A stretch of 5,585 nt of DNA from Nitrospinota bacterium (lineage in GTDB: Bacteria > Nitrospinota > Nitrospinia > JACRGO01): assembly GCA_016212295.1 (NCBI GenBank), contig JACRGO010000062.1, forward strand, positions 1 through 5,585. Direction: 5' to 3'. Within the stretch, counting starts at the first letter, position 1; each line of letters begins with the position of its first letter. Shown here in pieces: positions 60-5,584 of the stretch. The notes beneath the pieces were generated by a model. It was not told the DNA's origin and did no database searches. It saw only the letters and a list, made by a program, of their open reading frames with translations. The position numbers and the translations under genes were made by a program.

Positions 60-82
60 TGGCCGAAGGCCGGGGTGTGTCA
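44..82. repeat. Dispersed double-hairpin repeat at the end of the radical SAM gene
   Basis: Two adjacent palindromes are visible: 44-59 (CCCCTCT/AGAGGGG) and 61-71 (GGCC-GAA-GGCC), followed by GGGGTGTGT. From general familiarity, sequences of this form (a CCCCTC palindrome, a short GC hairpin, then GGGGTGTG) recur as intergenic repeats in many environmental bacterial genomes, often near DUF559-type endonuclease genes. I cannot confirm copy number here. The radical SAM stop codon (80-82) lies at the repeat edge, which suggests that the repeat, or a rearrangement at it, set the present end of that gene. Confidence 0.6.
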
Positions 83-898
83 GCGGGCTTCATATTCCAA
101 CCGCATGCTTGGATAAACATTTTTTTCAAGACAGCTTCTTACAGAGAGGGGGACACTACCACGATATCCGTTTACCCAATTCTGTAAGTTTATGGTAGTA
201 TCAAGGTTTATGCCGCCACCTCGCCTTATAGGCTCCTCGGGCAATAATAAGAACTCAGCTGCTCCTAACTCTGTGGCAAGGTGAACTGCGGTTTCGATAT
301 CCCCAATGGTTTTTGAGTTGACTAAAAAATTGATTCCAAAAGGAACAATTTTTCTGAGTGCAACGATTTGCTTAATTAGAGCATCAAAAGACCTGCATCG
401 GATGGATTCATAGGTGTCCTCAACCCCATCCATGCTTACTCTGACAAAATGCAAATTCCCAGCAAGGTCGTCCAAAAGTTGGCTGCTTATATTATGAGCG
501 TGAGTAGTCATAGTAACAGCCAAGTTTGTTTTATTGGCAGTAAAGAAACAAAGTTCCGCAAGTCTTCGGTAGAGAGTCGGCTCCCCTCCCCCAAAACCCA
601 CACCAATGCAACCATTAGCATCTAACTCTATAAGCCAGCCTATTACACGTTCGAAGCTCAGCATAGCAAGGTTCTTAGGCGTAGGTGCGTAGCAGTGAGG
701 GCAAGTAAGATCGCAAGCATTTGTCAATGCAATCGAAACTTGTCGTGGAGCGGTTGACCATAGACTATATGGAGGCATGAACTCATCGATCAAAAGGTTT
801 ATTCCAGTTTTTCGATTGAAAAAGTGCAAGCCTGCTAATCCAATACGGATTTTCATGTGGGAATTTACATCATTAGGAGGTTGATTATCTGTGCCCAT
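80..898 (-). CDS. Radical SAM domain protein, probably C-terminally truncated
   Basis: Predicted radical S-adenosylmethionine enzyme, 272 residues. The cluster motif CxxxCxxC is at C62, C66 and C69 in the context LTNACDLTCPHCYAP and would bind the SAM-cleaving [4Fe-4S] cluster. The glycine-rich SAM-contact motif GGGEP is at 103-107, and VRVSMDG at 152-158 is a typical later strand of the partial TIM barrel. The barrel therefore looks complete. The protein ends at ...LEYEAR on a stop at the edge of the 44-82 repeat. Relatives I recall continue into a C-terminal segment, often with a substrate-recognition (SPASM-like) region, and no such tail is visible. Substrate unknown. The start is uncertain: the ATG at 896-898 gives the longest frame, while M15 (854-856) begins the part that resembles the family (MKIRIGLAGLHFFNRKTG). 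Neither has a clear Shine-Dalgarno sequence. Codon use appears more AT-rich than in the hisH-rsmD block, consistent with separate acquisition. The gene stands alone. Confidence 0.72.
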   Translation of the reverse strand: MGTDNQPPNDVNSHMKIRIGLAGLHFFNRKTGINLLIDEFMPPYSLWSTAPRQVSIALTNACDLTCPHCYAPTPKNLAMLSFERVIGWLIELDANGCIGVGFGGGEPTLYRRLAELCFFTANKTNLAVTMTTHAHNISSQLLDDLAGNLHFVRVSMDGVEDTYESIRCRSFDALIKQIVALRKIVPFGINFLVNSKTIGDIETAVHLATELGAAEFLLLPEEPIRRGGGINLDTTINLQNWVNGYRGSVPLSVRSCLEKNVYPSMRLEYEAR

Positions 899-1005: not shown

Positions 1006-1029
1006 GGGTTACGGGTATTATTTGGGCGT

Positions 1030-1062
1030 TTCACAAACCGTACTAAAAGGACGCTTTGTGAA
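1030..1062. repeat. 12-bp inverted repeat
   Basis: TTCACAAACCGT (1030-1041) and ACGCTTTGTGAA (1051-1062) pair at 11 of 12 positions around a 9-nt spacer. No T-run follows on the plus strand, and there is no convincing T-run on the minus strand either, so it is not an obvious terminator. It lies in the stretch that replaces the missing body of hsdM and could be a recombination or repeat element end, or a dyad operator. Confidence 0.55.
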
Positions 1063-1113
1063 GTAACCTTATTATAACGCTCCGAGCTGGTAAATACGAT
1101 AATTCCTATAGAT

Positions 1114-1281
1114 TCATTGTCTACTTTCACGCATAATTGAGGATAAATATTGTGAAAGACACATAAGGAATATGATACCCATGATGGGAATAAAGTATTC
1201 GTTGCTGGCCAGGTCCGCGTTGGAGCGGAGCTGGTCCGCTGAATTCCAGAGGCGCTTTTCCAATTTTTCGATGTTCAGCAT
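1114..1281 (-). pseudogene. hsdM: N-terminal remnant of a type I restriction-modification methyltransferase (HsdM)
   Basis: This 55-codon frame starts at ATG 1279-1281, preceded by a purine-rich GGATGGGA. It begins MLNIEKLEKRLWNSADQL, and residues 21-39 read NADLASNEYFIPIMGIIFL. That is the recognisable opening of HsdM, the N6-adenine methyltransferase subunit of type I systems, where LEKRLW.AAD.LR and the SEY..P.LGLIFLR pattern are hallmarks. Intact HsdM is roughly 500 residues or more and carries the SAM motif and the NPPF/NPPY catalytic motif, all absent here. After residue 39 the expected RHA-type continuation is replaced by unrelated sequence, which stops 16 codons later. No other hsdM, hsdS or hsdR piece is seen. 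It follows the DUF3800 remnant in the same orientation, fitting a former defence cluster. The peptide should have no methyltransferase activity. Confidence 0.75.
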
Positions 1282-1308
1282 TTTCCCATCCAAGGTGGTT
1301 AAAAAGCC

Positions 1309-1337
1309 TTGACTTTCCCCCTTCTTTCGCTTTAAAT
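1309..1337 (+). promoter_or_regulatory. Candidate plus-strand promoter facing the folded element
   Basis: TTGACT (1309-1314), a 17-nt spacer and TTAAAT (1332-1337) match the sigma70 hexamers at 5 of 6 and 4 of 6 positions with ideal spacing. Transcription would begin near 1344, run through the folded element and stop at the T-run at 1435-1440, giving an RNA of about 95 nt. No plus-strand protein gene exists to explain a promoter here. This is inference from consensus matching only. Confidence 0.33.
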
Positions 1338-1349
1338 TAATAGCATATT

Positions 1350-1437
1350 AAAGGCGCCATTAAATCCGAAAACCGCGATGATGTCGCGGAAACCGCTCGA
1401 CGGTCGCCCTCCGGGGCCTAGGATTTAAGGCGCCTTT
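1350..1437. repeat. 88-bp multi-hairpin element with long closing stem and terminator-like end
   Basis: The outer arms 1350-1367 (AAAGGCGCCATTAAATCC) and 1421-1437 (GGATTTAAGGCGCCTTT) pair over 17 bp with one bulged A. Inside are a perfect 6-bp hairpin CCGCGA-TGATG-TCGCGG (1373-1389) and a second weaker GC-rich fold around 1392-1418, including CCC-TCC-GGG. On the plus strand the closing stem runs into six or more Ts, an intrinsic-terminator layout; on the minus strand only TTTAAT follows. The element starts about where the DUF3800 coding sequence stops: the T-run encodes its last two lysines. Options are a dispersed palindromic repeat (the best guess, given the elaborate and GC-rich symmetry), a bidirectional terminator, or a small structured RNA driven by the hexamers at 1309-1337. 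It lacks the core sites expected of an integron attC. Confidence 0.6.
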
Positions 1438-1438
1438 T

Positions 1439-1892
1439 TTATTTTTTAAACCTGAAATGCCATATGGAAAAATCTTTTTTTCGGTAAGGCGTCTCCTGCA
1501 TCAGGTTCACCAACCCCGCCTTTTGGGCAATATACTCGCTTAACAACACCTTTCCCCTTCTGGCATTGGACTTCAAGTGGCAATGGTTCAGTTCATACCC
1601 GATGGCCCCCATTAAAACATCCGCCACTTGAAGCAGGTTGGTCTTCTTCGAGTCCTTGGGTTCAATATTTCTAATGATATCGTTGATTATTTTTCCCTTG
1701 AATTTCTTCTTCAAACCTCTGTTCAGAATAACTTTCAGTGTGCCAAGGGAGTAGGAGCTATCTCTTTGATCAAGATAAACTATGTATTTATCGTCATTTC
1801 CCGCATATGGGCCAAAAGAATGCAAAAGGAACTGATACATAATATCGGTCCTGGGTTTGCCTGCTTTCATCGCAATAAATGTGATAGAGCAT
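1439..1892 (-). pseudogene. DUF3800 protein gene with internal frameshifting deletion
   Basis: Two minus-strand frames together represent one DUF3800 gene. The first (1794-1892) starts at ATG 1890-1892 and reads MLYHIYCDESRQTQDR, the typical N-terminus of the family with the acidic DES motif; it then drifts into unrelated residues and stops after 32 codons. The second, shifted by one base, resembles the family from about 1840 (YQFLLHSFGPY) to its end at 1439, including YIVYLDQRDSSYSLGTLK and the hallmark DSKKTNLLQVADVLMGAIGY. The two parts meet at about 1836-1845. Family members of this type run to roughly 220-240 residues, so some 75-95 codons of the middle are missing as well as the frame. 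A 143-residue product could start at ATG 1868-1870, but it would lack the DES motif. DUF3800 proteins have a predicted nuclease-like (RNase H-like) fold, and the genes are common in defence islands. The ATG lies 65 nt beyond the hisH stop with no strong terminator between them. Confidence 0.8.
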
Positions 1893-1957
1893 ATCCTTGT
1901 TCTTTATAAGTCTACGACACGGCCACAGGCTTACTTGAAAGCTGTTATTTTATAGAA

Positions 1958-5418: not shown

Positions 5419-5584
5419 ACCTAAAAATTGCATTTAGCCGCAGATTAACGCGGATTAACGCAGATTTTTCAATAACTTGCAGCCAATAAGGATTTCACCC
5501 TTTAAGTGAAAGATGAAGTCGTAAAAATTCTTTGTTTTATCTGCGTTTATCTGCGTTTATCTGCGGCAAATGAAAAATTTAGGT
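5419..5584. repeat. Facing copies of a repeat built on a 10-bp unit
   Basis: The arms 5419-5465 and 5539-5584 are inverted copies. The 29-bp cores (5437-5465 and 5539-5567) differ at only three positions, and the outer flanks also match (ACCTAAA at the ends, CATTT near the core). Each core contains tandem 10-bp units of the type GCAGATTAAC or GCAGATAAAC. The 73 nt between the arms is AT-rich with a small TTTCAC/GTGAAA dyad (5493-5511) and no gene. Strings of CTGCG.TTATCTGCGGC are, to my knowledge, a widespread intergenic repeat type in environmental bacteria. It could be a MITE-like element or a cruciform-forming site. The right arm reaches the window edge, so the element may continue. Confidence 0.75.

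What the first reader, a model, noticed from the sequence alone, without database searches (positions are those of the whole stretch)
1309..1440. Possible small structured RNA or undescribed dispersed element between two dead genes
The 88-bp element has a 17-bp closing stem with one bulge, a perfect inner 6-bp hairpin and a second GC-rich fold. On the plus strand it ends in a T-run and is preceded at ideal spacing by promoter-like hexamers. While the neighbouring genes have decayed, the long stem is nearly perfect, which suggests recent insertion or selection on the fold. No protein explains it.
Basis: partly seen in the sequence, partly recalled or inferred. Interest (0 to 1): 0.6.

Follow-up and report, generated by a model that had tools for sequence, protein, structure and literature searches.

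The report
Structured RNA paired with DUF3800 gene
Between two broken genes of an uncultured bacterium sits an intact gene for a small folded RNA, and a distant relative of it lies head-on against the same kind of nuclease-like gene (DUF3800) in a phage, so it is most likely the RNA half of a little-understood RNA-plus-nuclease pair.

Summary
The fold is real: window 1350-1440 folds at -46.9 kcal/mol, z -5.8, 0 of 200 shuffles. It is a 17-bp closing stem with one bulged A, enclosing three hairpins and ending in a U-run. It is not a dispersed repeat: one copy in its genome, homologues in 2 of 77 genomes of its class. A covariance model made from this one sequence found a homologue in a Nitrospina MAG (49 bits, E 1e-8) with seven compensated pairs and the same CTTGACTTTC upstream. 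A two-sequence model then found a third copy in Moorella phage MCACPph1 (25.7 bits, E 1.6e-5). That copy abuts, head-on, the 3' end of a DUF3800 gene, the closest hit to the broken DUF3800 gene abutting the window's RNA (40% identity). DUF3800 proteins model as an RNase HII-like fold and DUF3800-associated ncRNAs are a published class (PMC10910872), but no Rfam model matches. Best reading: a new DUF3800-associated small RNA, binding or restraining the nuclease (inferred), orphaned by decay of its partner.

The parts
1308..1317 (+). CTTGACTTTC, -35-like box conserved in the Nitrospina homologue at the same distance from the RNA
1332..1338 (+). weak -10-like AT-rich stretch (TTAAATT); not clearly conserved
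   Evidence: inspection
1346..1440 (+). small structured RNA, about 95 nt
1350..1367 (+). 5' arm of closing stem P1 with bulged A1359 (GGCGCC-A-UUAAAUCC)
   Evidence: bulge and GGCGYC recur in L043 and L228
1368..1372 (+). conserved junction GAAAA
1373..1389 (+). hairpin P2
1392..1404 (+). hairpin P3 (ACCG/CGGU)
1406..1417 (+). hairpin P4; UCCG loop here, GAAA loop in the homologue, two stem pairs compensated
1421..1440 (+). 3' arm of P1 plus U-run, terminator-like
1439..1870 (-). 3' part of a broken DUF3800 gene, head-on to the RNA; its stop codon (1439-1441) overlaps the RNA's 3' end
   Evidence: PF12686 3e-7; PDC-M04A 1e-15
1830..1900 (-). remnant of the DUF3800 N-terminus (IYCDESRQTQDRYYV) in another frame (limits approximate)
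1114..1293 (-). N-terminal fragment of a type I DNA methyltransferase (HsdM)
   Evidence: PF12161; MTase_I 1e-16

Best explanation
Window 1346-1440 (+) is an intact gene for a DUF3800-associated small RNA. It is transcribed from its own promoter (near 1309) towards the 3' end of the DUF3800 gene. It folds into a closing stem with a bulged A that encloses a multi-helix junction, and it ends at the U-run that follows the stem. Shown: the fold, its conservation with compensated pairs, the upstream box, the head-on DUF3800 arrangement in two unrelated genomes, and the RNase HII-like fold of DUF3800 relatives. Inferred: the RNA is made, and it binds the DUF3800 nuclease as cofactor or restraint in a mobile, probably phage-defence-related pair. 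Here the protein gene and the nearby restriction-modification gene have decayed and the RNA is left over.
For: Fold z -5.8 in the window and -7.9 in the Moorella phage copy. One-sequence model finds the Nitrospina copy at E 1e-8 and nothing else at E <= 0.1 in 100 relatives beyond the window itself. Seven of 32 pairs changed on both sides, 98% of cells paired. Same CTTGACTTTC upstream. Two-sequence model finds the phage copy within 3 nt of the DUF3800 stop, on the opposite strand, as in the window; that DUF3800 is the best hit to the window's (40%, E 1e-17). Bulged A after GGCGYC in all three independent folds. DUF3800 relatives: AlphaFold2 pLDDT 80, best PDB match RNase HII, E 6e-6. Published association of DUF3800 with ncRNAs and RNase H fold (PMC10910872).
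Against: The Nitrospina copy has no DUF3800 gene on its 6.2-kb contig or elsewhere in its MAG (82% complete). Only three homologues, so covariation cannot be tested rigorously. The phage copy has two inner hairpins instead of three. Most DUF3800 genes in restriction-modification operons show no RNA. No transcript data. Model E-values are rough.
Confidence: 0.72

Rival explanations
1. A stand-alone trans-acting small RNA unrelated to DUF3800; its adjacency to DUF3800 genes is coincidence of mobile, defence-rich regions.
For: Nitrospina copy sits between a TPR gene and a tRNA-Ala gene without DUF3800.
Against: Two of three copies abut, head-on and within 3 nt, the stop codon of DUF3800 genes that are each other's close relatives.
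Confidence: 0.15
2. Only an elaborate bidirectional transcription terminator of the convergent genes.
For: GC-rich stem followed by a U-run, located exactly at a gene end.
Against: A terminator needs no conserved junction (GAAAA, GGAAACCG), no three inner hairpins and no conserved upstream -35 box. The Nitrospina copy lacks a clean U-run.
Confidence: 0.08
3. A miniature transposable element (palindromic MITE-like insertion) or an integron attC site.
For: Imperfect long inverted repeat in a decayed region.
Against: Single copy. No direct repeat at the two ends and no attC core-site sequences by inspection. Internal sequence conserved across genera while the repeat arms change with compensation.
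Confidence: 0.03

Closest known systems
DUF3800-associated RNA motifs (Weinberg et al. 2017; Rfam e.g. RF02969 DUF3800-I, RF02968 DUF3800-IX)
   Same: Structured ncRNA encoded next to a DUF3800 gene
   Different: No Rfam model matches the window, and no DUF3800 model matches the Nitrospina copy, even at E <= 10 on a 150-base search. The gene arrangement of the published motifs could not be compared because the paper is not held.
Type III toxin-antitoxin systems (ToxIN-like), from general knowledge
   Same: Small structured RNA paired with a nuclease in phages, plasmids and defence regions
   Different: No tandem RNA repeats upstream of the toxin gene; RNA lies head-on at the 3' end; the nuclease fold is RNase HII-like, not ToxN-like
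Bacterial Y RNA (YrlA), from general knowledge
   Same: Paired ends with a single bulged base and a U-rich 3' tail
   Different: No Rfam match; here the inner part is at least as conserved as the stem; presence of a Ro/TROVE gene was not tested

Membership tests
DUF3800-associated RNA | Encoded next to a DUF3800 gene | tested here: met
   Window and Moorella phage; not so in the Nitrospina copy
DUF3800-associated RNA | Conserved secondary structure with compensatory changes | tested here: met
   7 of 32 pairs between two sequences; 4 of 14 stem pairs in three sequences; few sequences
Rfam DUF3800 families | Match to an existing Rfam covariance model | tested here: not met
DUF3800-associated RNA | RNA is transcribed and works with DUF3800 | not testable with these tools
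   no expression or binding data
Intrinsic terminator | GC-rich stem followed by a U-run | tested here: met
   sequence 1421-1440; the simple hairpin scan missed it because of its long interior
MITE / repeat element | Multiple copies in the host genome | tested here: not met
Integron attC site | GTTRRRY/RYYYAAC core sites at the stem ends | tested here: not met
   stem ends read AAAGGCGCC / GGCGCCTTT
Bacterial Y RNA | Match to Y RNA models and a Ro/TROVE protein | tested here: inconclusive
   No Rfam match; TROVE gene not searched

The most novel reading that the evidence does not exclude
DUF3800 and its head-on RNA form a two-part RNA-nuclease module that spreads with phages, plasmids and restriction islands, in which several unrelated-looking RNAs (this one and the lambdoid prophage one) direct or restrain one RNase HII-like nuclease; solitary RNA copies such as this one persist after the protein is lost, for example to neutralise incoming modules.
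Probability: 0.2. Interest if true: 0.8.

Novelty: new variant of a known kind. Interest (0 to 1): 0.52.

Why it matters
DUF3800-associated RNAs are computational orphans of unknown function. A new motif with a defined geometry (RNA gene head-on, ending at the DUF3800 stop codon) and a small 20-kb phage carrying both parts gives a directly testable pair, and the RNase HII-like model suggests what the protein does to nucleic acid. If it is an RNA-controlled nuclease, it would be a new type of RNA-protein module in phage-bacterium conflict.

Tried and rejected
Blastn for copies in the genome, 100 relatives, plasmids and phages: chance-level pieces only. Motif scans of IMG/VR and of 84,980 species genomes: only the Nitrospina copy was real, the others failed the covariance model (14 of 94 loci were not loaded and so not tested). 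Orthologues of the TPR gene beside the Nitrospina copy have no RNA or tRNA next to them. One pattern search was mis-spaced by me and missed even the window: it is no evidence. DUF3800 searches with the window protein found nothing else in the class; an alignment-based search found 12 genomes, mostly operon-type DUF3800 genes without a gap for an RNA. Tried and dropped: MITE, attC, Y RNA and hammerhead-like readings. Weak Rfam names (XIST_A_REPEAT, serC, Srn266) are far below their cut-offs.

Full report
OBSERVATION. Window 1346-1440 folds, on its own, into a closing stem of 9 + 8 base pairs interrupted by one bulged A (1359), which encloses three hairpins (1373-1389, 1392-1404, 1406-1417), with A-rich junction strands (GAAAA, AA) and a run of T at the 3' end (-46.9 kcal/mol, z -5.8, 0 of 200 shuffles as stable; 132-nt version z -4.6). 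The promoter-like hexamers alone are no better than chance.

NEIGHBOURS. The gene that touches the RNA's 3' end, on the other strand, is the C-terminal part of a DUF3800 protein (PF12686, 3e-7; PADLOC PDC-M04A, 1e-15). Its N-terminus (IYCDESRQTQDRYYV) survives in another frame and the middle is missing, so it is a pseudogene. On the other side is an N-terminal stub of a type I methyltransferase, HsdM. Further right are intact hisH, rsmD and an aminotransferase gene.

COPIES. Blastn and a covariance model built from this single sequence find only one copy in the window's own 3.7-Mb genome. The model finds one further place among 100 relatives, a MAG of an uncultured Nitrospina (49 bits, E 1e-8; identified, contig CATMOP010000125.1). 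The class of the window's genome is therefore Nitrospinia (inference from shared class). The two copies share TCCGAAAACC, GGAAACCGC..G.CGGT and GCC.AGGA, and they differ in stems with compensation: 98% of cells paired, 7 of 32 pairs changed on both sides, and sliding the partner by one column drops pairing to about 50%. Hairpin P4 changes from GCCC-UCCG-GGGC to GCUG-GAAA-CAGC, one stable tetraloop type for another. The 10-mer CTTGACTTTC lies 37-38 nt before the element in both; as an unconstrained local alignment this match is not significant (35 of 500 shuffles score as well), its weight comes from the same offset. A two-sequence model finds nothing else in 387 genomes or in candidate IMG/VR and species-genome loci.

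THE LINK TO DUF3800. The closest DUF3800 homologue in the phage collection is in Moorella phage MCACPph1 (40% identity, E 1e-17). Searching three DUF3800 loci with the two-sequence model gave one clear hit, exactly there: 25.7 bits, E 1.6e-5, L228 2387-2472 on the strand opposite the gene, whose stop ends at 2390. The window has the same geometry: RNA end 1440, DUF3800 stop 1439-1441. The phage RNA folds with z -7.9. It has the same 6 + 8 bp closing stem with the same bulged A after GGCGUC, then UUCCGAA, but two inner hairpins instead of three. Allowing for some 30 DUF3800 loci inspected in all the hit remains significant (my estimate, about 1e-4). A plasmid of Candidatus Megaera has a head-on multi-helix fold after its DUF3800 gene too (stem GCGUUACU..AGUAACGC, z -3.8), which the model does not recognise. 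DUF3800 genes inside restriction-modification operons overlap the next gene and show no such RNA.

WHAT DUF3800 IS. AlphaFold2 on ten IMG/VR relatives (pLDDT 80, pTM 0.83) matches RNase HII in the PDB (Foldseek E 6e-6, probability 1.0; TM about 0.46, so fold-level similarity only). This agrees with a published RNase H-fold assignment and with the statement there that DUF3800 is associated with putative ncRNAs (PMC10910872). The 2017 paper that defined those RNAs is not held, so the arrangement of the known motifs was not compared.

MECHANISM. Shown: a conserved folded RNA gene, head-on to and ending at a DUF3800 gene in two unrelated genomes. Inferred from sequence: own promoter, termination at the U-run. 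Inferred from known biology: the RNA binds the nuclease-like protein as cofactor or restraint. The RNA could also act by overlapping the end of the DUF3800 mRNA, since the two transcription units meet at the stop codon. In the window the protein partner is dead while the RNA is intact, and the Nitrospina copy also lacks a partner; an orphan RNA retained for its own sake, or simply recent decay, are both possible. My confidence that this is a DUF3800-associated small RNA is 0.72; that the RNA acts on the protein itself rather than on its mRNA or elsewhere is only about one in two given that.

NOVELTY. It belongs to a known kind (DUF3800-associated RNA) but to no described family in Rfam 15, so I call it a new variant of a known kind.

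Noticed in passing
L230:2345-2460 (minus strand); also L229 and L245: A second, different conserved structured sequence lies head-on after DUF3800 genes of lambdoid prophages (GGCGG..CCGCC, GTTGG..CCAAC, GTCGGC..GGTCGAC; 4 compensated pairs in 3 sequences). It has no Rfam match and is found, unannotated, in 44 of 5426 E. coli genomes.
   Followed up: partly
L244:1154-1330: Candidatus Megaera plasmid: head-on multi-helix fold (z -3.8) directly after a DUF3800 gene, closing stem GCGUUACU/AGUAACGC followed by UUUUAUU.
   Followed up: partly
   Followed up: no
window 1023-1064: Inverted repeat GGGCGTTTCACAAACCG / GGACGCTTTGTGAAG just beyond the point where the HsdM reading frame breaks off; could be the end of a mobile element.
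   Followed up: no
window 5434-5570: 32-nt inverted repeat built of GCAGATTAACGCGGATTAACGCAGAT-type units flanking 73 nt.
   Followed up: no
window 80-898 (-): Radical SAM protein with weak similarity to prokaryotic viperins (pVip 1.5e-14) and to SPASM-type maturases; function not resolved.
   Followed up: no
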